Assembly (NCBI GenBank): GCA_951230915.1
Contig: OX579641.1
Coordinates: 1,054,001 to 1,118,000 of the forward strand
Source: Antitrichia curtipendula
Taxonomy: Eukaryota; Streptophyta; Bryopsida; Hypnales; Leucodontaceae
Reading direction: 5' to 3'
Length of the DNA stretch: 64,000 nucleotides
In this document: piece by piece, positions 15,203-55,504 of the stretch
How positions within the stretch are numbered: the first letter of the stretch is position 1
How the letters are laid out: the number at the start of each line of letters is the position of its first letter
The notes under the pieces: generated by a model
Databases searched by the model: none
What the model was told of the DNA's origin: nothing
The model's input: the letters and a program-made list of their open reading frames with translations, nothing else
Translations under genes and position numbers: made by a program

Positions 15203-15211
15203 ACATGCACT

Positions 15212-25877: not shown

Positions 25878-25965
25878 CATTGTTGTCATACTGTACGGAC
25901 GTCCGGTTCGCCCGTCCGTCCGTCCGGGACATCCGTTAGAGGTCTCACCCGCCCGATACAGTCAA
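25878..25965. repeat. Left terminal region of element Y
   Basis: Starts CATTGTTGTCATACTG and continues with CGGACGTCCGG, GCCCGTCCGTCCGTCCGGGAC. The inverse of the right end at 46930-47027 shows the same order of motifs, including GTCCCGGATGGACGGGC. This gives extended, imperfect terminal inverted repeats of roughly 80 bp. Confidence 0.8.
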
Positions 25966-26004
25966 CACAAAGTTGACTTTATGAAACCAAAAAAGTAGGC
26001 CACG

Positions 26005-26345
26005 TGGACGCCACGGGGACGCCACGGGGACGCCACGTGGATTTAGGAACATGCAAGGCGGGGACTCCAGAGTCAGGGCGAGGACTCCATTGAGTGGGGG
26101 CAGGGACTCCATCCAGTAGGGGCGGGGACTCCAGACAGTGGGGGCAGGGACTCCAGTGAGTGGGGGCGGGGACTCCAGTGAGTGGAGGGCGGGGACTCCA
26201 GTGAGAGGGGGCGGGGACTCCAGAGAGTGGGGCGGGGACTCCAAAGAGTGGGGCGGGGACTCCTGCGTGGAAGCGGGGACTCCTGCGTGGAAGCGGGGAC
26301 TCCAGCGACTGGGGCGGGAATGTGAGGAGGACGGGGCGTGGACGG
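26005..26345. repeat. GGCGGGGACTCC tandem array before the kinase-like gene
   Basis: About a dozen copies of a 20-26 bp unit with the constant core GGGGCGGGGACTCCAG and a variable tail such as TGAGTG, AGAGTG or CGTGGAAG, preceded by three ACGCCACGGGG units at 26012-26035. The reverse complement of the same core makes up the arrays at 30.2, 38.8 and 41.5 kb. Units are contiguous, with no unique spacers. Confidence 0.85.
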
Positions 26346-26380
26346 CACGTGTCGGGGCGGGTACTTGAGGAGCGGGGAAC

Positions 26381-26390
26381 TATATAAAGC
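26381..26390 (+). promoter_or_regulatory. TATA box of the element Y kinase-like gene
   Basis: TATATAAAGC immediately follows the GC-rich array and lies about 190 bp before the ATG at 26573. It is the best TATA match in this part of the window. Confidence 0.65.
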
Positions 26391-26572
26391 GAGTCCCCAC
26401 CCTCATTTCTTTGCCAAGTCCGCGCCCTACGCCTCACACACTAGTTCGTCCCCACGGCCTATGTGAGTGAGTTTGGTGGGTGGTGGGCTTGGCCCTCATA
26501 TGTGACCCGGTTTTTTTCAAATTTTCGGGGCTTTTGTGCTTGCAGAGGCCCATTGAACACTTTCTTTTCGTT

Positions 26573-28152
26573 ATGGCGGGGGAAGGGAGTGCATCGGCGG
26601 AGAAACGTCCTATGTTTGTAGATTTAGATGATGTCGGTGAGATGATAATTCCATCCACGGACAACTTGATGGCCTCAGGTTCATCGAACCCTTCTTCATC
26701 AAGCCAAAAGAAACGCAAGAAAGCACTCAATCCCCATATGCCTCCACATGAATTCATAGTTGAAGGGAGAGCAATAGTTGTGGTGTTCTACACTCGTCGC
26801 AGTACGACTATGTTGACCAGGGAGTATGTGGCGCTCAACGAAGAAGGGTACCACAAACTCACGAGGGACCTGCGAACGGAGCTGGAGTCAAAGTTTGAAG
26901 CATCTAAGAAATTCAACAATTTCTCCGATTATTGGTTGCACCAAGACTGGCTGGATAAACAGGTGGTTGCCTTCACAACCAATATAGTGTCAAATTGGTG
27001 TTACCACATGGGGAAGAAAGAAGATGGTAGCGATTGGGACACACAAAATAAAGAGGTGGTTGCAAAGTTGAAAATCATTCAAAACTTTGCTCAACAATTT
27101 TCTTCATTACGTAAGAAAAAGCAAGCACCTTGGAAAGCGACAATTGAAGACACCATAACAGCTCATTGTGTTAGTGGAACATTCAAGTGGCTTGAAAGTT
27201 CAGTAAAAGTCATCCCCATGCCGGAACAGAGTGCCGTTGGTTCATATGGGACCGTGAGGAAGGTGATGCTTACAAAACTTCAGAGCATTCCTAGTTGGAT
27301 ATTTTTTGCTGGGAAGAGCTTGAAAACCACGAATGAAAAGGAGAAGCGCCAAGGAATCATCAATGAGGCGGACGGGTGTCCAGTGAGACATCCTGGCATC
27401 ATTCGAATTGCGTACCTCCATCCTAAAATGATGGAAGGCTACACGTTATGGTGGAATGGAGGCTTTCTTATTTCTTTCTTATCCAAATACAATTCGAAAG
27501 TAAGCGAAACATTGGATGTCGATGAGATTAAGCATGAACAAGGTACAGGGTTGACAAAAGAGGAGCTTACATGGGTTGCAACTTACCGACGGAACCGAGT
27601 GAACTTGGCACTCTCTTTGCTTTTAATGTGGGGAAATGCCACGATGCGCAGTACATGCACAACGACATCACTCCATCCAATATTTTGCTCCATTTTGATG
27701 ATTATAAAGAGCACACGGTGTATATAGGGATATGTGATTGGAGACTTTCTAGCCGAGCTGTAGAGAAGGAGCCGTCAAGGTATGGCTTTCCCAACAAGGA
27801 CATCCTAGTGAAGGAGAAGAGAATGCGAAGGTTTGCAGCCTCTGAATTGTTTTATATATACGGAGAGCAAGGTTCGGCAAATTCAATTGAGGCCATGCAA
27901 AAAATGCATTTGTATTCCATGGCAGCTGATGCATATGCGGCCGGATGGATAGCAGCACAAATTTGGAAGGAAGAGTGGGACTGCAAATACTTTAGAACGA
28001 AGAATCCAAAGCAGTATCAGAACCTCAGGATCAAATTGGAAAGCCTCGTAAAAGAGGATGTGAGTGAAAGGGCGTCAGTGCCAGATGTTCTCGACGCATT
28101 GAAGAAGGCCCCCCACTGTTGGACTATGCCAGAATGTTGTTATCGTATATAG
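26573..28152 (+). pseudogene. Kinase-like cargo gene of element Y, one frameshift
   Basis: Starts at ATG 26573 (MAGEGSAS). After a Ser-rich start comes the N-terminal domain shared with the gene at 10826-12310: VVFYTRRSTTMLTREY, then YWLHQDWLDKQVV. The kinase domain follows, with GSYGTVRKV as glycine loop, FFAGKSLK with the ATP-site Lys and NEAD as a possible helix-C Glu. The frame is lost near a GGGG run at about 27630 and resumes one frame over with YMHNDITPSNILLHF and GICDWRLS. The catalytic Asp and Asn and the metal-binding Asp are all kept, so the ancestral protein may have been an active kinase with HND in place of HRD and DW in place of DF. Known plant kinases with this exact motif set do not come to mind. 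It is the first gene of element Y, behind a GC array and TATA box. Confidence 0.78.
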
Positions 28153-30188
28153 TATTTAGTTTTTTTACTTTTTGTAGCTTAGCATATAGTTCAGGCATAG
28201 AAGGTAAATAATCCTCATAGAGGACCATGTGTATGTACTTCGCAATTGCCGAACACCTCAAATATATATGAAGTCGGATGCATTGTACATTCAAAATCTC
28301 ATGTGAATATATTAACCTGCTATGTCATTGTTCTTTCTCATTGCATGTTTATGAGTTCTATGAATTGATGATAAAACTTTTATAAAAATAGTGAATGCAA
28401 TAGTTTGGTATAAAAATACATACACTTTATCTTTTCACTATGTCTATGTTTTACAGTTTTAGAAGTTAATGAAGCCCCCCCCAAAATAAAATAAATGATC
28501 CAACAAAAAAAAGAATAACATTGAAGTACATTGGGATAATTTTAATCATGAACACAAAAAAAGGTTCAAAAAAATTAAAAATTATAAAACGAAAAAAAGA
28601 AAAGGAAAGGGAATGGTGGAACCCAAAAATAAGATTAATGGCTTTGAGTTGAGGTGGAAGAACTTTAGTAAATTAGAAAAAAATAAAGTAGGGAAAGGAA
28701 AGATTGAACGAATAAAGCTAAACTATGAATTCGAATAAAATAGTCTTCTCACTTAATGAACGAAAACAAAATAGAAAATGAAATGTTTGAACAAAAAAAA
28801 AAAAATAACTATAAGTTGGAATGGGAGAGTTTTAGGAATGAAGCGAACAAAAAAAAATAATCATCCAAGCCAAAAGAAATGGCATAGAGTTGGCATGGGA
28901 ACTCCTTTGTTCATTAATGAAAAAAAAAATAGGAAAGGAAATCATGGAACAAATCCAAAATGGCTTGGGGTTGGTATGGAATAATTTTGTGAGAGAAATA
29001 GACCCACAAAAAATAGTGTGTCAAAGTGATTTCAACTAACACCCCAAAAAATTTACCATTTAGTTCAGATAGATTTGCGTTACCACAAAAAGTAAATGGA
29101 ATTTCCTTTAGATGAAAGAGCTTGGTTAATAAAAGCAAAAAATGAAATTAATAGGAATGATCATTCAAAAATAAATGGCCTCGAGTTGGGATGGAACAAT
29201 TTTGCTAATAGCGGGAAAAAAAAATCATTCCACCTTACACAAGTGGCATTGAATTCAAATAATTTTTTTTGGTAATGATGCCCACAAAATAGGGAAGAGA
29301 ATGAAAACACCAAAAAAATTATGGCAATCACTTGAAATGGAAGTGTGCTTTAAAAATCAATGTCTAAAAGGAGAGATGGAGTGACCAAAGCTTTAGAAAA
29401 GCATACCAATTTATTTTAGGATTTTTAGCGGGGGGAATTATTTTTACGGACTTAAATAATCTGACATTAAAAGAAATATGAATGGTGGAGTGCTTTCTTA
29501 TATGGAAATGATTTGGGTGTCACTATAAAATAATGTAACATCCAAAAAATCTATGGAATAGTGGAGTGATTTGGACATGGAAGTGGTTTGGGGGTTATAA
29601 ACTTATAATGAAGCAATTTAACACCCAAAAAAAATATGGAATGGTGGATTGATTAGGATATGGAAATTATTGGGGTGTTAGAGTGATATGATCTAACATT
29701 AAATCTCAATATGGACTGCTAGAGTCACTTAGAACATGGAGTAATGTAGAAGGCTCAGAAATCACTCATCTAAGGGCTGGTTCGCATTTCTACAGTATTT
29801 CTTTACATGGGAATATTTTTAAGCTCATCCTTGAAACCAAGAAAAATTGATGAGGAATGTAGCCCAATCGGTTTCATATTTTTTTAAACATTATTGAATT
29901 AATTATAAATTTTCAAAGGAGATGTGTCCTAGGTCCCTATTTATATTCTTACGTCCTTCATATTGCAATTCTAAAGAAAAATGGGGATAGCAAAGACAAT
30001 GATTGGCTCTTGTGATAAAGAATGTTTTTTTCCTTCCTTCCTTTTTGTCTTTTGAGGTCAATTTGAAAACTGCATCATGTCCATTCTACAACCACTTATA
30101 GGGGCAGTTCTTAATGCCAAAACTCTTTTCGAGCCTTCTACCTTAGGAAATGGAAATATGTCTAAGCACATTAACTTCGTATATTTAA
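28153..30188. repeat. AT-rich filler with degenerate GGAATGAAGC...AAAATAGGAAAGG repeats
   Basis: From about 28550 to 29300 the sequence repeats motifs such as AAAAATAGGAAAGGAA, AATGATTCAAC, ATGGCATTGAGTTGGGATGG and GAGTTTTAGGAATGAAGC in a loose unit of about 70-100 bp. The same family fills 36700-38330 and 40190-41270. From 29300 to 29730 a related ATGGAATGGTGGAGTGATTTGG motif recurs. No gene is supported. Confidence 0.65.
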
Positions 30189-30189
30189 A

Positions 30190-30425
30190 TCATGTCCGCG
30201 CCCACTCTTTGGAGTCCCCGCCCCACTCTCTGGAGTCCCCACCCCACTCTCTGGAGTCCTAGTCCCACTCTCTGGAGTCCTCGCCCCCACTGTCTGGAAT
30301 CCCCGCCTCCACTGTCTGGAGTCCCCGCCCCACTGTCTGGAGTCCCCGCCCCATTGTCTGGAGTCCCCGCTCCCTCTCGGTGGAGTCCCCGCCCCAACTC
30401 GATGGAGTCCCCGCCCTGGCGTCCC
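30190..30425. repeat. GGAGTCCCCGCCC tandem array before the RING gene
   Basis: Eleven or so copies of a 19-23 bp unit with the core CTGGAGTCCCCGCCCC and a variable ACTCT or ACTGT tail. The core is the reverse complement of the array at 26005-26345. It ends 10 bp before a TATA box. Confidence 0.87.
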
Positions 30426-30435
30426 CCAACTGCAA

Positions 30436-30445
30436 CTATATAAGG
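30436..30445 (+). promoter_or_regulatory. TATA box of the element Y RING gene
   Basis: CTATATAAGG follows the GC array and lies about 137 bp before the first in-frame ATG at 30573. Confidence 0.6.
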
Positions 30446-31421
30446 CCGTCCCCGCCTCATTTGTCCCCGCCCTGCATACTCTCAGCCTTCCATCTCTTCA
30501 TTGAGCTGGTTGTGAGCATTGTGCGAGGTCTACTTGATTGCCACGTGGAGGATTTCGCTTTTTTCTACAAAAATGGATACACCACCAAGAATGACCAAGG
30601 AAGAACGAGATAGGACCTGACCATGAGCCGGAAACAAACATCGCAAGCGATTACATGTTCTACGAAACCCTGACAAGCTTGCATTCAGGGGGTGGGAGGG
30701 CGTGCTTGAACCATGGACATATGATGACTGCGCCAATTACATTGAGTGGTGCCACATAGACAAGTTGTTCTCGGAAGAGCGACACAACTGTCACAGACGC
30801 TTCCACAAGGCAAATTTAAAATACTGCTTGGACGAAGAATTTACAAACCGATGCATTGAGGTGTACCAAGTGTTGTATGCTCTCTCAAACGTCATACGCA
30901 ATGAAGTGCAACTTTTCCTTGCACGAGGGGTCTATGCGGAGCTGAAGTTGAACAAGAGAGTGGATTGGTCAACTTTGAAGCAAATGGGAGAAAATGTCAA
31001 TATTCCTACTGCAGCAAATGGATTCATTCCAAGGGGGGTAAAAAGATACCCGGAAGGTGGTCTAGGGAAAACAAATACGCAGGTTCAAGCACCACGAAGA
31101 TATGATACTGAAGACTCATCTACGGACGACGACTCAGATGGATCTCGTGTACCAATTGTAGTCAGCCATAGAACTCAACTACTACGAGCTAGAAAGAGGA
31201 GGGCTTCGCGTCAAACTGCTGAGGTTTTACATGAAAATGTTGTGGAAGAACAGGAGCCACCTATTGACGAACCAGTGGTAGGAATTGTGGATGTTACAAC
31301 TGCTACAAACCGAATCCAGGGTTTGTTGATTGAAGTGAATGAGAAGAATGAGGAATTGCATTCTTTGTATAATGATGTTAACAAAATGAGAGAAGACATG
31401 CAAGAGAAGGACAACATTATC

Positions 31422-34400
31422 TGTCGTACGCGTAATCTAGGGGTAAGCACCTTTAACACACAATTGTGGTTAGATGACACGGAAAATCGTCCCAGGGACT
31501 CTACTATGTTGTTATGAATTTGGATTTAATCGGATTATCTCTAAAACACCCCAAGGGAACCTAAAACCTCTCTTTCCCTCTTCCGGAACTTTACTTCTTT
31601 CCGGTTTCTAATCCGGATCCGACATTTTCCGGAATCCGGATACAGTAACTCTTCGGTTTGTAATACCCCTGTTTTACCTTCAGGGGGTCCGCTTTTACTC
31701 TTTGAAGGGGCAGGGACTCCACCACTTATTAATCACATATTCTAACACCTACAAAACAACCCAAGACATTTAATAGATCTAAATGTTGCTACGAAGTAGG
31801 TTCCCGTCTCCTCACAGCTTTCCGGATTTCCTATCCGGAAAGCAGGTCACACAGAATCCGGTTCTCCCTCTCCACTACAACGACAGATACACAATCATCT
31901 GATATAGACACAAGAGAAAATCCACGAAAAAGTAGTTGGTGTTGTAGTTGGTGGATCTTCCGGTAAGTGGGGGTATTCCCCTTGGCGGCCGCTTAACTCC
32001 GCACGGAACTAGGAATAGTTCCGGAACCTCACCCTCTTCACTTCAATCGGATTACTGTTCTAGTAATTTAAAGACCCTAAATGCACAAGTCCCACAAATC
32101 CGATCTAACTCCTTCAAGGATCCTCTTCTAAGATCTAAATCAAAACAACCATGAATCCGGATTCCTCCTTCCCGGTTCCTCACAACTTACAAGGCACACA
32201 AACACACCACTCAAGTCCTTAAAAAGTACTTTAAAACATGGATAGTTCACTAAGTGGCTTGGATCAAAGTAAGGAAAATGAAATAAAAACTGAAATTGCA
32301 TAAGGATGGAATCCATGAGCAACAGACCTGCTCACCATTTAAAACCAAAACAAAAAGGAAAAAGACAACCGAAAATCAAGCTAACCAATCACAGAAGCAT
32401 CCGAGATATCCGGAGTGCTACTGTAAGTTATCCCAGGAATTCCGGAAACGGGCCCACATACGGAAAATCCGTTCCGGAAAACCCTAAATAAAAATTTAAC
32501 TTCTAAATCCTACTTTCTTCGTCTTCTTCGAGTTGCTCCCCGTCTGCACCTAAGATGTCCTCGCCCTAGTCTTCGGCAGTGGTGTGAGCTTTCCGGCCGC
32601 TCGTGTCTGGATCTTCCGCTTCTTCGGCGGTGAGTCTTCTTCCTCATCCGTCTCTGTCGCGGATTCCGTCTCGAAGTCCTCCTTCTCGGATTCGAGAATC
32701 TCCATCTCCCGGATTGGTGAATCCAAGTTGATCGGCTCGTTGATAGCCTCCGGGGACGATGGCTTCGCTGGTGTTTCCTCCCGCATATAGACAAAGTCAG
32801 CCGGATGCGACTTGGCCGGATTCTCCACTGCTCCAATCCGGTTGAGCAGATTACCCCGGATCTGCATCCCTTCTTCCGGTGTCTGAGTTTGATCCGGCGT
32901 GGAAGTTCCGCCTTGTTCCGGAATGTTCTGCTCCTCCCTTTGATTCTGTCCCGGAGAATATGTCTTTTGAGCCAGCCATTCGCGCTGCACAAACGGCTTC
33001 AGGAGAGACTGTAGTCCTCCTAGTTTCGACAGTACCGGAATCCCCACAACTGGTTTCGGCGGAGTTTGGAGATACGGGTTGGTGGTGAGATCCGCTTCCG
33101 GAAAGGTCGAGAAGTCCATTGCCCTATCCGGATCGACTCGAGCCACCAGAGTCTGCATTTCTTGAAGTACCCTCTGCATCCGGGCCTCGAAATCCATAAG
33201 GATCATTACGATCTTGGATCCAGCCACGTGTCCCCCTGCTACCAGTTGGGCGTCGTAGAGTCTTGCCTTGTTCACAACCTCCGCCGGTTGTTCGATCAGG
33301 GCTTGGAGGTTCCGGACCATCTGCATGGCATCTTTCTCATTTTTCTGTGCCGCCTCGCATTCTCCTTGTGCCCAGTTCCTCCGGCTTTCCGCCTCCTCCC
33401 GGCTTCTCTCCAGGACCCGGATATGCTCGTCCTTCTGACGGATGACTTCCGGATTCGGCCTCCGCCGAATTTCTTTGATGATCTCCGTGGATGGTACGTT
33501 CAGTTCCGTCGCCACCTCTTCCATGAACTGGATGGCCTTGTGGTGTAGGCTCTGGGCCTAATGCATCCAGTCAAACCCGATGTCGAAGAACTCCCTTAGA
33601 GGTGGCTTCTCCTCTTCCGGAACTGGGCTTGGTTCCCGTTGTTCCATCTCAGGTTGCTTCCCCCGTGAACCCGGATCCGTCGACTTCCGCCTGGGCTTCT
33701 TCCGCTCCAAGGCTTCCTCTTCCGGATCGTCTTCCTCCGCCTCCATCAGCTCGTCCTTCTCCAGCTCATCCGTAAGGTCATATTTGAGCAATTCCAACCC
33801 GGTGTTGTACACCAACATCTCATCCGTCGTCAATACGTCACCGTGGTGGTAGATGTGGAAAAGGTAGGGGCTGATCGGGCTGTACCGGCTTTTGGATATG
33901 TGGTCAGCGAGTTCTGACACCACCTGTGCTATGATACGTCCCCAGTGCACCACTCTCTCCTCCATCGCTCCGAAAATTGTGTTGGCCATCGTAACCGTAA
34001 CCCGGGTAGGTTTTTCCGGATACAGTATCGGAATGAGGAAATTCAACACCCTCTTGTGGCGCTCGTCCACGCAGTCGCTAATCGCATACCCTTCTTTCGC
34101 GTGAGGAGGGTTTTGGAACTTTCCGGTCGCGTACTTATCTGCCCGCGAGGCGAATCCGTCTCCGAACTTCCGGAAAGAGTAGACTTCCGCCCATACGTCC
34201 TCCGTCCACCCCTTGGGCTGCCCTCGCATCGTCAGCTCATACTGGTTCGAAGTCCCGTTGATCAATTCCTGAATCAACTCTTCCCCTCTCAGATTCCACT
34301 GCCGGTCGATCAATCCGGCACACCCTAATCTCTGGAGATCCTGCTCCAACTCCTGCCGAGCGGTGGGGTCTGTCGGTATGGACGGACTCACCATCCGGGC

Positions 34401-34891
34401 AACCACCGACGATTTTGCGGATCGCGCCGCACTAGTTTCCGCCATCGCTACACCGACAAAGAAAACCCTAATCCGGCCTCACCTCTCTCTATCCGTAATC
34501 GAACTCTCACCAGACTTTCTCTCAACTAGCTACGCGCGGACGAGTTTGGAAACTCAAAAGATGGAGAGAGAAAGGCGGGTGATGGCCTTTAAATAGCCAA
34601 AACAGTGCCTTGAGTTCTCGGATTGGAACTGGATTAGGTTTCCGTTCCCGAGGCGCGTCCCTTAGCCTCGTAGGCCGGATCCCTAGTCCGTAGGTGGCGG
34701 CGCTCCGGTCCATTTCCGGAAACCCTAATCTTGGTCGGATCGGAAACTAATTTCCGGATGAAGGCTTATTCCAAACGTAAGCTTCTCCGGAAGACATCTA
34801 TCATTTCTTAACCGAAAAAAAATTAAAAATCTCTATCTATTCCATCTATTCTACTCTATCTATACGGAAATTAGGTTTCCGTGTTGTGACA
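31422..34891 (-). mobile_element. Solo LTR (3470 bp) of the Ty3/gypsy family inserted in the RING gene
   Basis: On the plus strand it runs TGTCGTACGCG...GTGTTGTGACA, the inverse of the LTR at 21623-25109, and is flanked by perfect TTATC duplications (31417-31421, 34892-34896). No gag, pol, polypurine tract or second LTR is present, so recombination between LTRs removed the interior. The two LTRs are clearly diverged in their coding region, so they come from different insertions or subfamilies. Confidence 0.93.
32550..34445 (-). CDS. LTR-encoded protein of unknown function, nearly intact copy
   Basis: ATG at 34445 opens a frame interrupted only by TAG at 33558-33560, after DWMH, where the relative at 22058-24012 has Gln. 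The frame continues in phase to 32550, about 630 codons in all. Conserved segments are RLGCAGLIDRQWNL, GWTEDVWAEVYSFRKFG, VTMANTIFGAMEERVVHWGR and YLFHIYHHGDVLT. An acidic stretch, heptad-like helices (EELNVPSTEIIKEIRRRP region, RNWAQGECEAAQKNEKDAM) and MILMDFEARMQRVLQEM follow. The tail is acidic, then basic (PPKKRKIQTR, a likely nuclear signal). It lies in the sense direction of the LTR, downstream of the LTR TATA box. No enzyme motif is evident. Function unknown; a structural or DNA/RNA-associated role is only a guess. Confidence 0.75.
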
Positions 34892-36345
34892 TTATCAATC
34901 AACAACAACGTGAGATGGAGGTACTTCGGCACGCTCTTGAGGCAGCAACATTGGCCAATCGTGGTCAAGATCCACGAGGGGAAGCGCAAGGGCCTTCAAA
35001 TAATTCTCAAATTCCATTGGAACCTACAGAAGTTGGTGCAACAATGGATACTCAGGATGATTCTTTGTCCTTTGGAGAATTACCCGCAAATGTAGGTGCA
35101 GCAGGGCCAGTGGACCAAAGCATCCAACTGACGGACGCGCTTGCAATGAATTTGACATTGAAAAATCAATTGCATGCATTGATAGAGCAGTATTACCAAT
35201 GGAAGCTGGCATGTGTCTTCAGTGTTGACAGGACTAGGCAAATGGAGGAGGAATTCAAAAAAATTGACCACAATTACGGCGCACACAATCAAGAGAGGGT
35301 TTAGGGTTTGACATCGTGGGCCCTGGTGGATGATCATTTCAACATGGATGAAATGGCAACCATTGACATTGCTGGTGGACAAACAACCATCGACTGGTCC
35401 AAACATGATTGGGATTTCAAGAATGAAGTTGGCTCTGCCGTGGACCATGAAGGCAATCCATTACTACTGTGGCCAAACCCTTCAACCTTCGTACACGATG
35501 GAACTACATGTCCCATTTGCCTTAATCCATTTGGCCCGGAAGGTGGAATGCACTTAGGCACGTGTGAACATTTGTACCACCCATTCTGCCTAATTAGCTT
35601 GATGATTGTCCACCGACGTTGTTCACTATGCAAGGCTCCTTTCCATAAGCGCTTGTATGAGTTGTTTGGATTAGTTCCCTACATGCCACCGCATTGGAAA
35701 TTCAATGCTGAAAATGCCCCTGATCATTCTCAGAAGTGGGGAACAGACTTGGTGTGGAGTTGGAAATTGAACATCCATTCGTTGGGCAAACAACAACTTT
35801 GTACCGAATGGGGTTGGGAAAAAGATCCGGCTCAAATTGTGGAGGTGTGCCACCACTTGGTTCCATTGAAGGACAACTTTAGCCAAGGACGACGGAATTT
35901 CTTCTTCCAATGCTTCAATGGGCATTGGAATGAGGCACAAGAATACTTCCAATTTGGACCTCATCCTCTTGGATGGTTGTGGGGCGTTGATGGAGTTCGC
36001 ATTACTGACGACCAGGGGATGCGGAGGGGGGAAGACATTGACATGCCAGACCCTGCTGAACTTGCACAACTATCGGAGTCAGAGTGGCAAGAAACCTTTC
36101 GAAATGATGGGATGGACTTCTTGTTGGAACAACATAGCCCGGGAACTCTCCAATGTCTTCAAAGCCTCAAGCAATCACAAATATTGAAGGCTCTTTTAGA
36201 GGAAGACGGACCAGCGAGGAGAACTCGATCCGCAGTTTGTAGACTTCGTTTGGGAACAGATGAAGACCTTCCAATTCGCGCCGGGACACATGACAATGAG
36301 GCTGGACCAAGTGGCAGTGCAAGTAGTCCAATGAACATGGACTAA

Positions 36346-36699
36346 GTATAGTTTTGAGTATAGTTTTGAGTGTTTTAGCTAGTGAGCTTAGGTTTTCTTA
36401 GAAGACTTATTTTCCTAGCACTATAATATTATATAGGCTTATATACTTTCCTACTTTGTATTACACTATGCATATGAAATATATTTGATTTTGTTTTGAA
36501 TGATTTTGCCCAAAGTGACTTCATTTATTTTTTGCACGTACTCATTTGAAATTTGAATGGACTTGTGGACTTCATACATATTAAAATTATTTATACCATG
36601 AAATAAAATGTCATTGAATTGGAGTACAATTCATTCCCAATTTCTACTCAATGAATAGAAGTAGGGAAGGTTGGACGGACCACGAAGGCACGAAGTGGC
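36346..36699. other. 3' flank of the element Y RING gene
   Basis: AT-rich sequence after the RING frame, with a GTATAGTTTTGA direct repeat just past the stop. It probably holds the 3' untranslated region. No gene seen. Confidence 0.45.
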
Positions 36700-38330
36700 C
36701 CGAACTTGAAATTAGGGAAAAAAACGCTTTTCAAATGTCATTAATGCCTTGATGGAAATATATATATGCAAAGGAATGATGGAACTCCCCCCCAAAAGGG
36801 ATTGAAATAGGTAAAAATTCACTTGCAAAATAGGCAAAGGAATGATAGAGAAAAGCAAAAAATAGGGAAGTAATTACCTACTTAAAAATGAATGGCATTT
36901 AGTTGGGATAGAATAACGTGACAAATGAAGCCCAAAAAAATTAGAATGGGTTTAGAGAATACAAAATTTAAATGGCCTTTGATTGAGAATTTTAGATAGA
37001 GCAATTTTGCTAATGAAGCACAAAAAAAGTAGGAAGGTAAACTGAATGCCAAAAATTGGCATTGAGTTGGAGAAAAATTAGGAAGAGAATAATAATGCCA
37101 TTTAGTTTTTATATAACTTGGGATGTAACAATTTTGCTAATCAATCTAAAAAAAATTGGAAAAGAAATGAATCCAAAAAATTAGGAAAGGGAAAGAATCC
37201 TCCCCAAAAAGGAAAGGGAATGAATCCCAAGAAACATTTGATAAGGGAATGAATCCCAAAGAAATAGGAAAGGGAATGATATACAAAAAATAAAGGGCAT
37301 TGGCCATTGGGATGGCATGGGATAATGTTGCAAATGAAGTTCAAATAAAATTAGGAAGTAAATGATATACCCAAAAAAAAGGCATCTATTTGGGATACAA
37401 TAATCTTGCAAATCACTAACAAAAAATAAGAAGGGCTTAGGTAATACAAAAATTAAATTATTTAAATGGCCTTCGGGCTCATGATGGAATGGAGCCATTT
37501 CGGCATTTTGCTAATGAATTTTACAAAGATTAGGAAGGGAAAGAAATGTAAGTGCATTTTAAATGTTGCTAATAAAAACAAACAAATGTGAAAGAAATAT
37601 GAAACAAATATTGTTTCACATTACCTCTTATGTCATATGAAAAATGGGAAGTGAATGGATAGACTTCAATTTCGTACCATAAAGAAAAAAATTTAGGGAA
37701 TCCCTTAGGATGGAATAATTGTGCTAATAAATAAAACAAATAGGAAAGGAAATAAGCAAAAAAAAAATGCTTACCGTTGGATTAAACAATTTTAGGAATT
37801 AATGAAGAAAAAAATAGGAAAGGAAGTGAGTTGGATGAATAAATATTGGCATGGAGTTCACATAAAAGAGTTCTATGAATTAATGAAGAAAAAAATGGTG
37901 TCTTTGAGTTGGGGACTTGGGGTGGGAGAACTTCAGGAAATAAGCAAAAACAAAATAGAGATGGAAATGATTCAACAAAAAAAGATGAATTGAAAATTGG
38001 GATGGAAGATTGTTAGGAACAAAATAGAAAAAGGAATGATTCAACTAAACCAAAAAAATTAAATATAATTTGGGATGGGAGACTCTTACGAATGAAGCAT
38101 CTACAGAAAAAGAAGACAAAATGATCCAACCCAAAAAGAATGCCATACAATTGACAAGTTGGGATGGGAGACCTGTGCTAATTCCTGGAAAAAAATAGGA
38201 AAGGGAATGATGCCCCCCAAAAAAGGACAGTGACTTAGAATGGAAGACTTTTAGGAATGAAGCCCGAAAAATTAGGAAAGGAAATGATGGAATTAAAAAT
38301 TGCAGTTGCATATTGAAGGCCTAGAATTTT
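36700..38330. repeat. AT-rich degenerate tandem repeats (second block)
   Basis: Many imperfect copies of AATGAAGC.CAAAAAAATTAGGAAAGGGAATGAT and ATGGCATT.AGTTGGGATGGAA. Minus-strand frames here are repeat-derived, such as the one at 37181-37498 with several FIPFP/FSLS stretches. Same family as 28550-29300 and 40190-41270. Confidence 0.7.
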
Positions 38331-38555
38331 AAATAACTCCCCTACTATTTCTTTCATTTCAAATACAATGCAGTTTTATCCTTTTATCTAGTACACTACA
38401 TTTCAAAAATATTGATTAAACATTTACTAAATATTTCCTCAAAGTGTCCTAAACATTTCCTAAATCAAAGAATTTACATTGTTTTTTACAACCTAAATGA
38501 TATGTTTGTTCAAAGTAGTTTGAAGTGTTAAAAGAAGTAAGGAAAAACATTTCTC
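38331..38555. other. AT-rich spacer, nothing recognised
   Basis: No open frame, repeat unit or motif that I can support lies between the AT-rich repeat block and the duplicated array module. Confidence 0.4.
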
Positions 38556-38943
38556 ACCACAACAAAGGAGACATCCTCTTCCATGGATTTTCTTCCAAAT
38601 CTTAGGCCATGGACCTCTTTATTCGGCATCTTGCTTTCATTGTCTTGTTAGAATCCAAAATAAGTTGTTGAGGCTAAATTAATGCTTCCCACTCTCCAAG
38701 GAAAAGGGCGGTTCAAGGATGTCGCATTTCAAAGTCTTGCTTCCTGTGCTGGACGAGTTAGTCCCCGCCCTGCCTTCGAGTCCCCGCCCTGCCTTCGAGT
38801 CCCCGCCCTGGAGTCCCCGCCCTGGAGTCCCTGCCCTGACTTCGAGTCCCCGCCTTGACTTCGAGTTCCCGCCCTAGAGTCCCCGCCCTGACTTCGAGTT
38901 CCCACCCTTATTTGAAGTCCCCACCATGGAGTCCCCGCCCTAT
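38556..38943. repeat. Duplicated segment and GGAGTCCCCGCCC array (copy 1)
   Basis: 38556-38758 matches 41272-41480 in the same orientation at about 85 percent by eye (CTCTTCCATGGA, TTTCTTCCAAATCTTAGGCC, CTCTTTATTCGGCATCTTGC, CTTGCTTCCTGTGCTGGACGAG). A tandem array of CGAGTCCCCGCCCTG units then runs to 38943. No gene follows this copy; a Tc1/mariner remnant is inserted at its end. Confidence 0.8.
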
Positions 38944-38947
38944 TGTA

Positions 38948-40182
38948 CAGTACCCTCCAAAAAGTCTTGCAACCCCATTATGAAGTCCTTCAAATTTTCC
39001 TTTTTAACTCCATTTTAAGAACATACTATGAAAATTATCCTATTAAATCTATTGCTTTATGGAACCTTCACCAACATATGAAATTTCAATGTCTAAAAAT
39101 AGAAACTCCATTTTTGGTGAATTATTTTATTTATTTTTCACGATATTACATAATAATTAATTAGAAAATGTGTATGATGATTTTTTAAGATTTGATTGCG
39201 TATATATTTAGGAAACATCATTGTTCACATCTTTCATATTACAAAGATGCACACTATGTATGTAAATTTTTTGTCTATTTGGCTTTAATGTATTTTGCAA
39301 TTTCCTTTCATACATGTTCAAGGCAAAGGTCATGTATTCAAAAACATTTGAATAAATATTGTCAAATAGGATATCATTAGGAAGCTATGGTATTGTAGAA
39401 GCCTACTATATCATGAATTTTACAGTATGTCTCGCTGACTAGCAATGACTTTGCAACAAAGTGTTACACCTACTACCATCAAGTACTACCACCTTGAGCT
39501 GCTATCTTAGCTTTGATTTGGTTAGGCATCGTAGAAATTGACTTTTGAATACTTTCTTGAGGTATATCCTTGCATGCCATATTCACTAATGTCCACATTT
39601 AGTCATTGTTGTAGGATCTACATCTTTTTTGTACTCGATCTTTGACTTGCTTCTATAAATTCTCTATAGGATTAAGGCCAAAAGAATTTGGTGGCCACTC
39701 AATGAATTTTACATTATGTCATGGTGCAAAGTTGACCAACATTGCTTAGAACTTCACAAGTTTGCTTATAGAACTTCTAGCAACATCATATATACAATAT
39801 TTTAGACAAACATTAATTTTTTCTCACAAAACTTCTAGGCTATGTCTACAAGCAACAATCATTAGAAGCATGCATGCACTAATGTTGATCCTCTCAACCG
39901 CAAAACCGGTTGAAATCCACTACCTATGATCTTCTACAATGAAATTTTCAAATTAGCATTGTCCCTTTAAATTTAGCTTAGTGTTTTCAAAATCAACCAC
40001 CTTTCACAAAGAAAGATTTTTCTAAGAAGTGGAATGAGTTACAACAAGGTGCATGACTCACCTAGTTTGGAGCAAAAAATCTCAATCAAATATCTAAATT
40101 TACCTACCATGAGTTTGATTTGTAATCAAACTACTTGGATGAGAACTAGACATGGGGTTGCAAGAGTTCTTGGAGGGTACTA
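38948..40182 (-). mobile_element. Tc1/mariner element remnant, 1.2 kb
   Basis: Terminal inverted repeats start CAGTACCCTCCAAAAAGT on the left and, inverted, TAGTACCCTCCAAGAACT on the right, then share TCTTGCAACCCCAT. TA duplications flank both ends (38946-38947, 40183-40184). On the minus strand near 39475-39715 the translation reads EWPPNSFGLNPIENL, the Tc1/mariner signature next to the last catalytic residue, followed directly by a stop. The transposase is otherwise decayed. It inserted into the array module of element Y. Confidence 0.85.
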
Positions 40183-40189
40183 TACATTC

Positions 40190-41271
40190 AATTAAAAAAG
40201 AGTCCCTTGTGCCAAGTATTCCAAAAAATGAATCCCTTTACATGAAGAACAAACTATAACTTGTAACTTCTCATTGTTCTAAGACAAGAATGAAATAAAA
40301 AATCAATAGGAATATGAATAATGGATTAAAAAACAAATGGCATTGAGTTCGGAACTTTGGATGGAAGAATTTGTTTATGGATGAAGCAAAAGTGATAAGA
40401 AAGGGAATGATTCAACAAATCAAGAATGGCAATGATTTAGGATGGAAGAGTTTTTGGAACGAAGCAAAGAACAAATATAGGAAAGGGAATGACTAAATAA
40501 AAAAAGATTGGCATAGACTTGGAATAAAAGAGTTTAGGAATTAAAGAAGGAAAAAAATAGGAACGTATATAAAAATAGAGAATCGAATGATTCTACATAT
40601 AACTATTGGCATGCAATTGGAATTAAAGAGTTTTAGGAATTAATGAAGCCAAACAAAATAGGAAAGGGAATGGTGGAACAAAAATAAAATGGCATTGAGT
40701 TGAAAACAAAGTGCTTAAGGAGTTCATGTAGCCAAAAAAACTAAGGGGCATTGAGGTGGAATGGAAGAATTTTAGAAATGAAGCAGAAACAAAAACGAAA
40801 AAAAAGAGAATGATGGAACAAATAAATTATGGCTTTGAATTGAGGTGGTAGAACTTCAAGAAATAAGCAAAAATGAAGTAGGAAAGGGCATGATTCAACA
40901 AACAAAGATCGGCATGGTGTTGGAAGAATACTACAAAAGGGACTTGCTAAGTTTTGAAGCAAAACAAATTAGAAAAAGAGATCATTCAACAAAACAACCC
41001 AAAAAATATGAATTGGGATGGGAGAGTTTTAGGAATGATCCAAATAAATAGGGAAAGGAATGATGGAACCAAAAATGAACATTTGGCTTTGATTTGAGAT
41101 GGAAGAGTTTTAGGAACAAAATAGAAAAAAGAATGATTCAACCAAAAGAAAAAGAATTAGAATAAGTTGGAATGGGAGAGTTCTAGGAATGAAGCCCAAA
41201 AAAAAGGAGAGAGAAAGATCCGACCTCGAATGAATGGCACAAACTTGGGATAGGAGAGTTTTCCTAATACC
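40190..41271. repeat. AT-rich degenerate tandem repeats (third block)
   Basis: Same loose unit as the other two blocks (GGAATGAAGCAAAA..ATAGGAAAGGGAATGATTCAACAAA..GGCATGGAGTTGGAATG). In the undisturbed element this block would follow the 38.8-kb array directly, so this module has no gene. Confidence 0.7.
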
Positions 41272-42092
41272 TTTCATCACAACGAAGGGGACATGCTCTT
41301 CCATGGAGTTTCTTCCAAATCTTAGGCCGTGGAGCTCTTTATTCGGCATCTTGCTTTCATTGTCTTGTCAGAATTTGTTGAGGCTAAAATTAATGCTTCC
41401 CCCGCTCTAAGGAAAAGGCGGTTGAAGGATGTCAAGCACAAGCGCATTTCAAAGTCATGCTTCCTGGGCTGGACGAGTACGTCCCCGCCCTGGAGTCCCC
41501 GCCCTGCCTTCGAGTCCCCGCCCTAGAGTCCGCGCCCTGCCTTCGAGTCCCCGCCCTAGAGTCCCAGCCCTGCTTTCAAGTGCGCGCCCTGACTTTGAGT
41601 CCATTCCATGGAGTCTGAGATTGAGCTGCGCTCTCTCAAGTTCCTCCATTTGTGTGAATTGTCCGCCCCGGAGTCCGCACCCTGCGTCCGCGCCCTAGCA
41701 CAATCCATTCAGCGAAAACATTGGGGAGTGAAAGCCATTTTCTTTGCCCACGAATTTGGGGGCGTGACGACATTTAATGTTCCCCTTTTTCCATGAAAAG
41801 GAGGGACACAATCTTCCCAGACCATTAAGGATGGCGAAGGTCAACGTACTTTTCGATGCATCCCCGTGAGCACACCTGCATTTCTGTACTGGAGTCGCGC
41901 CCTGGAGTCCGCGCGTTCGAGTCCCCGCCCTGGAGTCCCCGCCCTACCTTCGAGTCCCCGCCCTGGAGTCCGTGCCCTGCCTTCAAGTCGCCGCCCTGCC
42001 TTCGAGTCCCCGCCCTAGAGTCCCCGCCCTGACTTAGAGTCCCCGCCCTGACTTCAAGTCCGCGCCCTATACTTTGGTGACGAAGACGTCCG
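41272..42092. repeat. Duplicated segment (copy 2) and GC arrays before the transposase gene
   Basis: 41272-41480 is the second copy of 38556-38758. Tandem GGAGTCCCCGCCCTG / CGAGTCCCCGCCCTG units follow at about 41481-41700 and again at 41891-42072, separated by about 190 bp. Frames inside (e.g. PRPGVPALPSSPRPRV) are repeat artefacts. Confidence 0.82.
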
Positions 42093-42110
42093 CGCCCCCT
42101 AAACCGCTAA

Positions 42111-42120
42111 GTATATAAAG
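42111..42120 (+). promoter_or_regulatory. TATA box of the element Y transposase
   Basis: GTATATAAAG lies at the inner edge of the array, 270 bp before the ATG at 42380. Confidence 0.65.
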
Positions 42121-42379
42121 GAAAGGAAGACCCAGCATTCCCCACATTTGTCACCTGGCCTCTATTTCTTGGACTTCAATTCATTTTGAGCTCCTTGTGA
42201 GTCTACTTGGGTGGCAGATGGCCCTAGTTTGCTGCTGAGGTGATGTCAAAATCAGTTCAAGCAGTGGAGTAGCGCTAACTGCTGTTACTGATACTGTGTT
42301 TGGTATATCTTGGATCCTTTTAACTTCAATATAAAGGAGGAGGAAGACGGAAGAAAATATCCTTGGATCGTTGAACGCA

Positions 42380-45300
42380 ATGGCAAGTCAAAGGAAGCAG
42401 ACCAAGGAATGGGAGCCGTGGCTTCAGTTTACGGAGAATGGGGTTAAAGTGACTTGTGTTTTCTATGCTGGGACCGTCAGTTACAAACGCGAGCGTGCTT
42501 TTGCACACTTTGGATATGGCTCCAAATCGGAGAGGTCAATTTGTCGAAGTATGCCTCGTCCAGTGCGACATAGATTTGCCAATTGTGCAGGATTTGTCCC
42601 GCTACGAATCGATGTCGGGGACATGTATGAAGGAGAACCAATTCAAAGTGCGCCATCTAGAGCAACTCCTCTTGCAAGTTCAAGTGAAGCCACTGAAAAT
42701 GAGGTGACGGGTGGGATCAATGGTGGAAGAGTGGAAGAAGGGGCAAACGTTTCAGAAGGAATTGATATTCTACAAACGTCAAATAGTCTTGCTGGATCCA
42801 ATTCTACGAGATCTGGATCATTACGTCAACAACGCATGGCGGACGCATTCAACATTGCAAAGAGGAAGGAGTTGGATGAGAAGTGGGCAAGTTTTTTCTA
42901 TGAAGCGAATGTGCCATTTAATGTGGCAAGGCATCCAGCCTTCATTGAAGCGGTGAGGGCAACCTCAGTGGCGAAGTTTGAATACAGTCCACCTTCTTAC
43001 CATCAATTTAGGACTAATTTGATTGAACCGAGGAGGTTGCAAATTGAGAAGCAGATTCAAGAGAAGGTTGGATTTGCTGTCAAGCACTACGGGGTGTCGA
43101 TATGCACCGATGGTTGGGATGATGTCAATCGGAGCCCCCTCATGAATGTGATGATGTCATGCCCCACAGGTGATGTATTTTTGGGGTCAATTGATACTAC
43201 CTCGCAAAAGAAAACCATGAGCTACATATCGGACCAAATGAACGTGTACATTGAGAAGGTGGGTCCCAAATATGTAACACAAGTGTGCACAGATAATGTA
43301 GCAAACATGCTTGGCGCATTGAAGGACATCACTAACACATACCCGCATATTTTTGCGCAAGGCTGCATGGCACATGCACTAGATCTCATGTTGGAAGACT
43401 GGGCCAAAGTCCAAGAATTTTCCGATTTAATTGCCAGGGCAAAAAGATTGTGCCAATACATTCGAAACCATCATGCGACCATGTCGGTTTTCCGCGAGTT
43501 GAGTCCAAATCTGCAACTCGTAGTGCCTAGCGAAACCCGCTTCGCTTGTAATTTCCTCATGTTGCAGCGATTGGTGAAACTCAGAGGAGTCTTGGAGCGG
43601 TTGAATAACCACCCACGTGTTCTAAATTTCTTTGATACCCTAAGGAATGAACAAAATGGACCGCAAGCAGCTACCGCTTCACGTAATGTCAAAAGAACCA
43701 TTGAAGATGTGGCTTTCTGGCAACGGTGTGTGAATTACGTGTACATGACTGAAGACGTATTGAAGGCTTTGCATGTGTTTGATGGACGAGAACCAGCCAT
43801 GGGTCGGGCGTGGCTCGTAATGCACAATTTGCGAGGGCATGTGTTTTCTTTAAGAGAACCACCTTTCAGCTTACGTGATGACATAGCAGTCATTTTGGAA
43901 GAATCTTTCAGTGCAAGATGGCACATGGTTTTTGAAGATACACACTATGCAGCGGCCCTTTTGAATCCATACCTCTTAGATAACGTGGCGCTCAGGGAAG
44001 ATCGAACTGCCCTACGTGCATTGTACAGAGTCATCCGCAACATGATGGGGAACCTGGGTGTCAATTTTGATGATGTGATGGCAGAATTAACAGAATTCGA
44101 GGAGGGTATTGGACCCTACAGTCCAGCTGAGACACCCAACATCCGTGCGACACAAATGCTTCCCCACCAATAGTGGCATAGGGTTGGAGATCGGGCTCTT
44201 TCGAAAATTGCCGTGCGTGTTTTATCCCTCACGTGTTCCGCCAGCTCCTGTGAAAGGAATTGGAGTATGTATTCCTTTGTTCACAATAAGATCCGAAATC
44301 GATTGGCCCCTGAAAAGGCAGAGTCCCTGGTATATATTTATACCAATAGCCGTGTACTTCGCCAACGACCAGGAGCCGATCCAGTTCATTGGTATGATGC
44401 GAATATGTACTCAGAGGATTCTGATCCAGATGCCCTTGGACCGATCCCGGTGAATGAACGCAATCGGGAATTTGACGCACTACAATCAGAGGAAGAAGAA
44501 GAGGTTGATGGGGAAGCCAATCGAGGAGCTCAAGAGTATCCGGCAAACCCAGATCTTTGGAGGCAAGGAGCCGATCACCTCGAAGAAGCGCGGAACTACT
44601 ATGGAGATGCTGATGATGGAGAGGAGGAACTCCTTCGTGGTCGTAGGGGACCACCACCACCAAATCCTCGTCGTAGTCTTTCACCTCCACTTCCTCAAAA
44701 TGAAGGGGTTGTAGAAGTCCCAGCTTTGTCGTCTTCTTTGGAGACCGACAATCCAAATGACGATAACGTTGATGATGGTATTTCCCACAACAACAACGAC
44801 GATGATGACAACCTCCCTCCAGGAAATGGCGGCGGAAATGGCGGTGGAAATGGAAATGGTGGTGGACATGAAAATGGCGGTGGACATGAAAATGGCGAGA
44901 GAAACAGGGGGAGGAATGCGAATCCAAATCATGGAGGATCTTCTCACAATCGAGATGGCAATACACGCCCTACGGGAGTGGAACCAGCAACTCGTAACAT
45001 TAGAGCTCTAGAAAAACAGCATGATAGAAACGTTAGAAATGCAAGAGTGCCACGCCCTTTTGCAAGAAATCAACCGGCTGGTAACATGAGAAGGCCTTTT
45101 GATCCAGAGTATGTGGACCATGATGATGTTTTTGCTTTTGTAGAACCACCCGAAGACATTGCCCCTGTACCGGCTCCAGTTGCGGGCCATCCTGCTATTT
45201 CTGAACATGGTACACAAGTGCCACATTCCCTAGATCCATCTTCAGAAACAATTTCCAATGCCATCCAAAGACCTTCTCAAGAAAGATTAGGCTCAGTGGG

Positions 45301-45910
45301 AAATGTTGATTTGACTCTGCAAAGAGTTTCACGTGGTAGACCACCTGTGGCCCCTCGGCCCTCCGTTCATCATGAAGTAGGTCAATATCAACAAGCCCGT
45401 GGACGGACGAGAGGCCATGGTAGAGCTGCAGGCCGTGGAGGGAGTACAGGCCGAGGACGAACAGAAGATCTGCATATTGGAGAAGCATCATCGCCAAGGC
45501 ATGCTAATCGTTCACCCCTCGGAATTGGAGCAAGAGATCCAAATAGGGTGATAGAACCGTTCCTAAGTACATACGTACCAGGACCTAGCCGGTCAACTCC
45601 GGCATTTGTTGTTCGAACAATTCCAGGTGGGCCTACTATAAATTCTGATGTAGAAGACCCCAACGCACAACAACACAAGAGGTTGAAGCGCAAACGTACT
45701 CATGGCCAAACAACTATAGAGCTTCAAAATAAAAACTCGGAAGTTGAGGAACATTGGACCACCGACAGTGGTGAAGCAGAAAATGAATATGACAGCAATG
45801 AAGATGCCAATGACGAGGCACCAGAGGATGATGATGTTGTTGTTCGAGATGCTAATGCAGCGAATCCAAGTGCCCAAGAAGTTCGTAGGTCAAGTCGTTT
45901 GAATAATTGA
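42380..45910 (+). pseudogene. hAT transposase of element Y (DUF659/hATC type), one in-frame stop
   Basis: A single frame from ATG 42380 to 45910, about 1176 codons, broken only by TAG at 44171-44173. The N-terminus has a BED-like region. The RNase H-like core shows STDGWDD (Asp about 244) and CTDNVANM (Asp about 305), the two acidic positions expected in hAT, followed by PHIFAQGCMAHALDLMLEDW. After the stop comes the dimerisation motif ASSCERNWSMYSFVHNKIRNRL. The stop sits where family X has the first Trp of AWWDFEG, so TGG became TAG. The last 500 residues are an extra tail: acidic, Gly/Asn/His-rich (NGGGNGGGNGNGGG), ending RRSSRLNN. This is the natural mobilising enzyme of element Y. With one stop it may have been lost recently. 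Confidence 0.85.
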
Positions 45911-46336
45911 GGTTATTGAGTTGCATCGATGGTAGATCTCGGGTCTTTAAGAGTTGAAGACAATTGTAGCAATTGGAAGAAATATAGACGAGAAGCCAAA
46001 AAAATGTTTTGGATACCCTATGAGAAACAGAGAAAGTGAGCGTATTTTGGAAGTATAGATTCATTGTATTGATATTGTACTTTGCAATGCATGAATTTTA
46101 TAAACTATTTTGGTTATCACAAACATTGCAGCCTACCTGTTATTTTTTTGTGTATTTTGTATTTGATGGGCCTCCTGGAAACCTTGGTGGGGAAATCATG
46201 TAAAATACATTCCAGTTACTGGTTCTTTTTAATGCAGTGGGGTCTCCTATTTGTTCCGAATTTTTTTTATACATATATATATATATATATACATATATAT
46301 ATGTATTGTAGAACACATAAATTTAATCCACCATTG
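45911..46336. other. 3' flank of the element Y transposase with a (TA)n microsatellite
   Basis: AT-rich, no gene. A TATATATA run with two internal ACATA breaks lies at about 46269-46305. Confidence 0.6.
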
Positions 46337-46880
46337 CCCGTCCGCGCCCTCCCACTCACGTTCAGGTCCGGGCCGTACCTGAAGGAGTCCGCATCCTAAC
46401 GCGCTGAAGTCCGCGCCCTGCCTGAAGGAGTCCGCGCCCTGCCTGTCACAGTGAAGTCCCCGCCCTGCTTGAAGGAGTCCGCACTCTGACGCGTTGAAGT
46501 CCGCGCCCTGATTGAAGGAGTCCGCGCCCTCACTGTCACACTAAAGTCCCCGCCCTTCTTGAAGGAGTCCGTGCCCTGACACGTTGAAGTCCGCGCCCTG
46601 ACTGAAGGAGTCCGCGCCTTGACTGTCACACAGAAGTCCCCGCCCTGCTTCGAGGAGTCCGCGCCCTGCTTGAAGGAGTCCGCGCCCTGAAGCTCACACT
46701 GAAGTCCCCGCCGTGATTTGATGAGTCTGCGCCCTGAAGCGTTGAAGTCCGCGCACTGAATGAAGGAGTCCGCGCCCTGACGCTCACACTGATGTCCCCG
46801 CCTTGCTTGAAGGAGTCCGCGCCCTCACGTGCCGAAGTCCGCGCCCTGACTGAAGAAGTCCCCGCCCCTGGATCCAGCTG
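46337..46880. repeat. GAAGGAGTCCGCGCCCTG tandem array near the right end of element Y
   Basis: About 25 copies of an 18-22 bp unit with the core GGAGTCCGCGCCCTGA, alternating with TGAAGTCCCCGCCC and GCGTTGAAGTCCGCGCCC variants. The alternation gives a longer period of about 110 bp (TCACACTGAAGTCCCCGCC near 46448, 46538, 46628, 46692 and 46783). Orientation is the same as the arrays at 30-42 kb. Confidence 0.83.
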
Positions 46881-46929
46881 TCCAAACTGACGTGTCATTG
46901 AAAAAAATTCCACAACTTTGAGAAATTGA

Positions 46930-47027
46930 GGCCGCCCAGTTGGTTCGGACCGTCCGCCCGTCCGGTCCGGTTTGCCCGTCCATCCGGGACGTCCGATGAC
47001 CCTAACTCGCCCGTTATGACAACCCTG
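46930..47027. repeat. Right terminal region of element Y
   Basis: Read inward on the minus strand it starts CAGGGTTGTCATAACGG and continues through GACGTCCCGGATGGACGGGC and GGACGGGCGGACGG. This is the inverse of the left end at 25878-25965. The 8-bp duplication GACAAGGC follows at 47028. Confidence 0.85.
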
Positions 47028-49048: not shown

Positions 49049-49570
49049 GGTGGCTGTTTTAGACTCTGTGTATTGAAACCCTAAATTCAAAACGTAATGA
49101 TAACAATTGGGTAAAATCGTTCAAATGTTTATGCACAAAGCCTTGGAAAACAAGGCCCCCCTTTCCACTGAACTATGCATTACCAAGCAAGGGACGCAAA
49201 AAATTGCAGCCCCTAGCCCTTGGAAATCTTAACGTTCAGTTTCTTAGGAGTGTTTGCAAATGTCAATTTCAGGACTCTTATAGTCTTCATCTGTTTGTAA
49301 CCGTTGAATATGGGAAGAAAAAAAATCCTCCCACAACGGTCACACGGACGGCCAGCTGGGCCGTCGGAACAGCGGACGGCCAACTAGGCCGTCGGAACAA
49401 CGGATGGCGGACGGCGGACGCGAATCTGGTCCGTCCAAACAGCGGACGACGGACTGAAGCCGTCAGATCAGCGGACGGGAATCTAAGTCGTCGGATCAAC
49501 CGACGAGCCGACGAGCGGACGGAAATCTGGACCGTCGATTCAGCAAACGGGCGGACAGGCGGTTCTTATA
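49049..49570. repeat. Promoter region and CGGACGG-rich array of family X copy A
   Basis: 49340-49565 contains about ten units built on CAGCGGACGG..GGCCGTCGGAACAACGGA. It is the counterpart of 55505-55805 with a few small insertions and deletions. 49049-49330 is the non-coding leader shared with arm B. Confidence 0.75.
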
Positions 49571-55140: not shown

Positions 55141-55148
55141 AACGATAG

Positions 55149-55500: not shown

Positions 55501-55504
55501 ATTC

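What the first reader, a model, noticed from the sequence alone, without database searches (positions are those of the whole stretch)
25878..47027. A 21-kb hAT transposon carrying a kinase-like gene, a RING gene and its own transposase
Seen: perfect 8-bp duplication GACAAGGC, related terminal repeats CATTGTTGTCATA / CAGGGTTGTCATA, and an empty site in a second copy of the host gene at 58113-58120. Inside are three gene families in the same direction. Known: typical autonomous hAT elements are a few kb with one gene. Inference: this is a cargo-bearing hAT lineage in which kinase and ubiquitin-ligase type proteins travel with the transposase.
Basis: partly seen in the sequence, partly recalled or inferred. 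Interest (0 to 1): 0.92.

Follow-up and report, generated by a model that had tools for sequence, protein, structure and literature searches.

The report
Multigene hAT transposons with kinase, RING
A large cut-and-paste jumping gene, present in many copies in this genome, carries a kinase gene and a RING (ubiquitin-ligase type) gene besides the transposase that moves it, and it has landed inside a second, distantly related jumping gene with the same three kinds of gene.

Summary
In detail: 25878-47027 is a hAT element with a perfect 8-bp duplication, an empty site at 58113-58120, and kinase, RING and transposase genes in one direction. The genome (G000, 400 Mb) supports the interpretation. All 10 further copies I fetched (chosen for a left end plus an open RING frame) are 14.8-18.9-kb elements with the same ends and gene order and different target duplications (9 perfect, 1 with one mismatch). 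Less selected: 38 of 40 scored left ends and 37 of 40 scored right ends have the RING gene on the expected side. One copy has all three frames open. A diverged subfamily (proteins 61-78% identical, transposase tail 49-50%) has the same ends and genes; dN/dS is 0.12 (kinase), 0.17 (RING), 0.15 (transposase core). The interrupted "host gene" is itself the transposase of a second hAT family (about 34% identical), whose one fully read copy (16.3 kb) also carries RING and kinase genes, in another order. So this is a hAT lineage with a conserved kinase-RING accessory set. The window copy is broken in all three genes. What the kinase and RING proteins do is inferred only; I favour service to the element.

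The parts
25870..25877 (.). left target-site duplication GACAAGGC
25878..25890 (+). left end CATTGTTGTCATA (other copies CATGGTTGTCATA)
26057..26318 (+). GGGACTCC tandem array; with the inverted array at 30196-30416 it flanks the kinase segment
26471..28152 (+). protein kinase gene in two frames here (single 560-aa open frame in 5 of the 10 fetched copies)
30196..30416 (-). inverted copy of the GGGACTCC array
30627..36345 (+). RING-finger gene, open from residue 38 of the intact protein, split by a nested retroelement piece (784-aa open frame in 10 of the 10 fetched copies, which were chosen for it)
31422..34888 (-). 3,467-bp retroelement piece with 5-bp duplication TTATC inside the RING gene
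38783..41344 (.). 2.56-kb spacer module, present in 7 of 10 fetched copies and the window, absent in 3; no gene recognised
42335..45910 (+). hAT transposase gene (DUF659 + Dimer_Tnp_hAT) with in-frame stop at 44171-44173
47015..47027 (-). right end, CAGGGTTGTCATA on the minus strand
47028..47035 (.). right target-site duplication GACAAGGC
58113..58120 (.). empty site in the second, inverted family-A copy
7547..50377 (-). target element A1: family-A hAT, truncated at its 5' end, interrupted by this insert and by a retroelement at 16137-25109; right end CAGGGTTGACAGG at 7547-7559
10826..12382 (-). kinase gene of A1
47036..49120 (-). transposase gene of A1, interrupted by the insert near codon 698; it continues at 25577-25110
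51142..59406 (+). family-A element A2, truncated at its 3' end, with RING gene 51700-54491 and transposase 56028-58706

Best explanation
The insert is one degraded copy of a high-copy, recently amplified family (B) of hAT cut-and-paste transposons whose full form carries three genes: a protein kinase, a RING-finger protein and the transposase. The transposase cuts at the CAGGGTTGTCATA ends and reinserts with an 8-bp duplication. The kinase and RING genes belong to the transposon and are not chance passengers: they recur in nearly all scored copies, are under purifying selection about as strong as that on the transposase core, and occur with the transposase in a second hAT family (A), about 34% identical in transposase, in a different gene order. 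Shown: ends, duplications, gene content, recurrence, constraint, the second family. Inferred: cut-and-paste movement and recent mobility (from young copies with intact ends and frames). Inferred and less sure (about 0.45): both proteins act for the element, modifying host or transposase proteins by phosphorylation and ubiquitin transfer, for instance to blunt silencing or set transposase levels. The confidence given is for the structural statement.
For: 10 of 10 fetched copies with both ends and all three genes, 9 perfect TSDs and one with one mismatch; 38 of 40 left ends and 37 of 40 right ends with RING, 72 of 78 kinases with RING; one copy with all three frames open, 560/784/1185 aa; dN/dS 0.12-0.18 for kinase and RING against 0.15 for the transposase core; conserved catalytic motifs and a protein-kinase fold for a relative; family A with end CAGGGTTGACA, TSD GCTGTATG, RING, transposase and kinase.
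Against: The fetched copies were chosen for a left end and an open RING frame. Genome searches scored only the best candidates, so short copies without the extra genes may exist; 2 left ends, 3 right ends and 6 kinases lacked a listed RING partner and were not inspected. Only one family-A copy was read in full, its kinase lies in two frames and its transposase has one stop; 25 of 50 scored A transposases had no listed RING gene. Kinase and RING dS is near saturation (1.3-1.6). Shared changes within family B do not show constraint in the kinase (15 N, 2 S). The genome-wide transposase search for B did not complete. No expression or activity data.
Confidence: 0.88

Rival explanations
1. The kinase and RING genes are host genes captured once and carried passively, amplified with the element but without function.
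For: Gene capture by DNA transposons is common (review PMC13317346, passages); within family B the changes look near neutral.
Against: dN/dS 0.12-0.18 between subfamilies, like the transposase core; open full-length frames rather than fragments; both gene types also in family A.
Confidence: 0.06
2. The kinase and RING genes are cargo that helps the host, and the element is kept for that reason, as proposed for fungal Starships (recalled).
For: Purifying selection and wide spread fit.
Against: Over a hundred near-identical RING copies with a star-like burst, and decay after insertion, look like selfish amplification rather than host-level upkeep of a locus. No trait is known.
Confidence: 0.15
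3. The kinase-RING pair is a selfish drive or addiction module that rides on the element.
For: Only an analogy recalled from fungal Spok genes, which hold a kinase-like domain and ride on a giant transposon (recalled, no call).
Against: Nothing in the sequence points to a killing function; the RING protein has no known fold outside its finger.
Confidence: 0.04
4. The 21-kb unit is a chance nest: an ordinary one-gene hAT with unrelated kinase and RING genes from other insertions or misassembly.
For: The window is full of nested repeats.
Against: Same gene set between the same ends with different TSDs in 10 of 10 fetched copies, and the co-location counts.
Confidence: 0.01

Closest known systems
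hAT superfamily (Ac, hobo, Tol2 and kin)
   Same: [quoted passage not shown] motif as in PMC9587614, passage)
KIU (Kaonashi) non-TIR MULEs
   Same: A DNA transposon with a constant extra gene of a ubiquitin-like pathway (Ulp1 domain), one of three genes (PMC13317346, passage)
   Different: MULE, not hAT; a protease domain, not kinase and RING ligase
Kolobok lineages with accessory proteins (KolobokE, H, P, D, KolX)
   Same: DDD/E superfamily in which lineages keep distinct accessory proteins (PMC9587614, passages)
   Different: Kolobok, not hAT; the accessory proteins named there are nucleases, a helicase and KolX, not kinase or RING
Giant eukaryotic transposons (Burro, Teratorn and others; review PMC6431247)
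   Same: Large mobile elements with extra genes, in Burro also RING and ubiquitination-related domains (passages)
   Different: Other transposition enzymes; the term hAT does not occur in the held text of that review

Membership tests
hAT superfamily | 8-bp target-site duplication | tested here: met
   Family B: window and 9 of 10 fetched copies perfect, 1 with one mismatch. Subfamily D: 1 of 2 perfect, 1 none. Family A: 1 of 1
hAT superfamily | Short terminal inverted repeats of CAGGG type | tested here: met
   B right end CAGGGTTGTCATA, B left end CATGG/CATTGTTGTCATA; D CAGGGTTGTCATA; A CAGGGTTGACA
hAT superfamily | Transposase with hAT dimerisation domain and DUF659 core | tested here: met
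   PF05699 1.8e-8 and PF04937 3.3e-36, both above the curated cut-offs
hAT superfamily | Catalytic D, D, E with C/DxxH motif before the E | tested here: met
   CTDGW 257, CTDNA 318, CMAH 344, SSCERNW 637 in the intact copy; which residues are catalytic is recalled
hAT superfamily | N-terminal BED-type zinc finger | tested here: inconclusive
   CVFC at residue 41 fits, but no Pfam hit; feature recalled
hAT superfamily | Transposition by the encoded enzyme | not testable with these tools
   Needs an assay
Pack-type gene-capture elements | Captured gene fragments without own transposase | tested here: not met
   Full open frames plus transposase in the same element; definition recalled
Starship-type giant elements | Tyrosine-recombinase captain | tested here: not met
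   The three proteins hold only kinase, RING and hAT transposase domains in Pfam; definition recalled

The most novel reading that the evidence does not exclude
A whole clade of hAT transposons, old enough that its members' transposases share only about 34% identity, has as its core gene set a transposase plus a dedicated kinase and RING ligase, a signalling module that the transposon uses to manipulate host phosphorylation and ubiquitination, for example to escape silencing.
Probability: 0.45. Interest if true: 0.88.

Novelty: new variant of a known kind. Interest (0 to 1): 0.78.

Why it matters
hAT elements are usually treated as minimal one-gene transposons (recalled). A hAT lineage that keeps a kinase and a RING protein under selection like that on its transposase, with the same gene types in a second, old family and dozens of open frames, would be a natural system for asking how DNA transposons control or evade their hosts with enzymes other than transposase. 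Ten searches of the held open-access papers turned up no hAT lineage with such genes in their listings; subscription papers and Repbase were not searched.

Tried and rejected
Viral origin: the kinase and RING alignments found no relative in viral contigs (22 and 18 pattern stretches, none confirmed). A scan of genome contigs with the RING alignment gave one relative, L033, a 4.9-kb contig filed under a cyanobacterial MAG, 39% identical with an 814-aa open frame; none of the 87 protein records then held matched it outside that RING gene. Structure of a RING relative (P0066): low confidence (pLDDT 54), no PDB match at E <= 0.001. Kinase relative (P0040): pLDDT 76, protein-kinase fold. The idea that the 13-bp end is itself improbable in the window was rejected. 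The shared-change test within family B was uninformative. The organism was not identified; AAACCCT arrays only hint at a plant-type telomere repeat (recalled). The genome-wide search with the B transposase did not complete, so its copy number is not known.

Full report
CHECK. The insert 25878-47027 is bounded by GACAAGGC on both sides. Joining the two flanks reproduces the second, inverted copy at 85 of 88 bases with a single GACAAGGC. Pfam finds kinase, RING and hAT transposase domains; the window's own kinase and RING frames score below the curated cut-offs, the intact kinase above, the intact RING just below. A 13-bp end alone is not unusual in this window (19 matches with up to 3 mismatches, 16.7 expected), so the case rests on the coincidence of end, duplication and empty site and on recurrence.

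RECURRENCE. The window lies in a 400-Mb assembly. I chose 10 copies where a left end and an open RING frame lay together, so this sample favours good copies. All 10 have both ends, lengths 14,837-18,928 bp, 9 perfect 8-bp TSDs and one with one mismatch, all different. All 10 hold kinase, RING and transposase in the order and direction of the window. RING is open over 784 codons in 10 of 10 (by choice), the kinase over 560 codons in 5 of 10, the transposase over 1185 or more codons in 3 of 10; copy c4_10.8 has all three open. Less selected counts: 38 of the 40 scored left ends (352 candidates) have RING downstream on the same strand; 37 of the 40 scored right ends (245 candidates) have RING upstream, 30 have a listed kinase, and 2 have neither; 72 of 78 scored kinase matches (1433 candidates) have RING on the same strand within 15 kb. 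Those without a partner were not inspected; the partner may be missing or may lie below the scoring cut. Of 117 scored RING matches (1413 candidates), 106 are at 95% identity or more (my count). Two size classes come from a 2.56-kb spacer module (window 38783-41344), present in 7 of 10 copies and the window.

CONSTRAINT. Two of the eight places where the RING query matched at 72-73% were fetched. Both carry kinase (69-70% identity), RING (61-62%) and transposase (63-78%, tail 49-50%), with ends of the same kind. One has a perfect TSD, CGCCTTGG; the other has none. Here the kinase points away from the RING gene; in family B inverted GGGACTCC arrays flank this segment, which suggests an inversion between them. 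Nei-Gojobori dN/dS of c4_10.8 against d10: kinase 0.121, RING 0.166, transposase residues 42-767 0.153, tail 0.38; against d3: kinase 0.128, RING 0.184, transposase residues 13-450 0.146. dS is high for kinase and RING (1.3-1.6), so those ratios are approximate. Within family B, 11 copies show mostly singleton changes with pN/pS 0.59-0.65 in the three genes, as expected of decay after insertion; shared changes are few, pN/pS 0.54 (RING) and 0.46 (transposase), but 15 N to 2 S in the kinase, which does not show constraint.

THE TARGET. The interrupted gene is a transposase of another hAT family, A, 33-35% identical to B's. An A copy on C7 is 16,303 bp with ends CAGGGTTGACA and TSD GCTGTATG; it has the best terminal-repeat match (11 of 13) among 1637 pairs with equal 8-mers, and its left end is where homology to the window's A2 begins. 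It carries, in order, an 867-aa RING frame, the transposase (one stop at codon 814), a kinase in two overlapping frames and, on the other strand, a frame related to the RING protein's N-terminus. The window thus holds A1 (7547-50377, minus, 5' truncated, with the kinase at 12382-10826) and A2 (51142-59406, plus, 3' truncated, with RING and transposase). Genome-wide, 25 of 50 scored A transposases (2035 candidates) have an A RING gene upstream on the same strand, 24 at 4.2-5.0 kb and one at 9.6 kb, where chance would give about 0.2% each; 25 have none in the list of 104 scored RING places (1904 candidates). A tree of 22 transposases puts A and B in different supported groups, each with metagenome relatives.

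PROTEINS. Kinase: glycine loop, FAGK lysine, HND, N and DWG kept in most of 20 relatives (one has HNN, one HCD), with a helical N-terminal domain and a protein-kinase fold. RING: finger CPIC...CEHLYHPFC...CSLC, predicted coiled coils, otherwise no known fold. Relatives of transposase, kinase and RING occur in public metagenome proteins at up to 75, 88 and 88% identity over 56, 91 and 66% of the query; their genomic context was not available.

MECHANISM. Shown: unit, ends, gene set, constraint, two families. Inferred: cut-and-paste movement by the hAT transposase. Inferred with about 0.45 probability: kinase and RING serve the element by acting on host or transposase proteins. Precedents of the same sort are KIU MULEs with a Ulp1 gene (passage of PMC13317346) and Kolobok accessory proteins (passages of PMC9587614). 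Of PMC6431247 I saw passages; the term hAT does not occur in its held text. Ten paper searches listed no hAT lineage with kinase and RING genes; most listed papers were seen as listings only.

VERDICT. Interest 0.78: well-supported and surprising as anatomy, open as to function.

Noticed in passing
16137-25109 and 31422-34888: Two insertions with TG...CA ends and 5-bp duplications (ATTGG, TTATC) share sequence. The longer has gag, RT and integrase but only an 83-bp stretch of its start repeated inside it; the shorter (3.47 kb) corresponds to the part from that repeat to the end, so it looks like a solo long terminal repeat with open frames of 306-335 aa in it.
   Followed up: partly
47028-50377 vs 54749-58120; also G000 C1:21.57/21.60, C3:10.15/10.19, C4:12.77/12.81, C4:25.93/25.97, C8:3.91/3.99 Mb: Copies of both families occur as opposite-strand neighbours: A1/A2 in the window (97.5% identical arms) and five opposite-strand RING pairs 30-79 kb apart. 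Large inverted duplications or assembly folds; not resolved.
   Followed up: no
3089-4684: 531-aa open frame on the minus strand with a RING finger distantly like those of the elements (37% over 62 aa): perhaps a third element's RING gene.
   Followed up: no
8209-9258: Stretch in A1 related to the N-terminal domain of the RING protein but with no RING finger found; 95% identical in the C7 copy of family A: perhaps a fourth gene of family A.
   Followed up: partly
60931-61749: Open frame with an NLI-interacting-factor-like phosphatase domain (PF03031, 2.8e-12), outside the elements described.
   Followed up: no
26057-26318, 30196-30416, 38754-42069, 46340-46867: The element is studded with G+C-rich arrays of GGGACTCC/GAGTCCCCGCCC units, in inverted orientation around the kinase segment that is flipped in the related subfamily.
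   Followed up: partly
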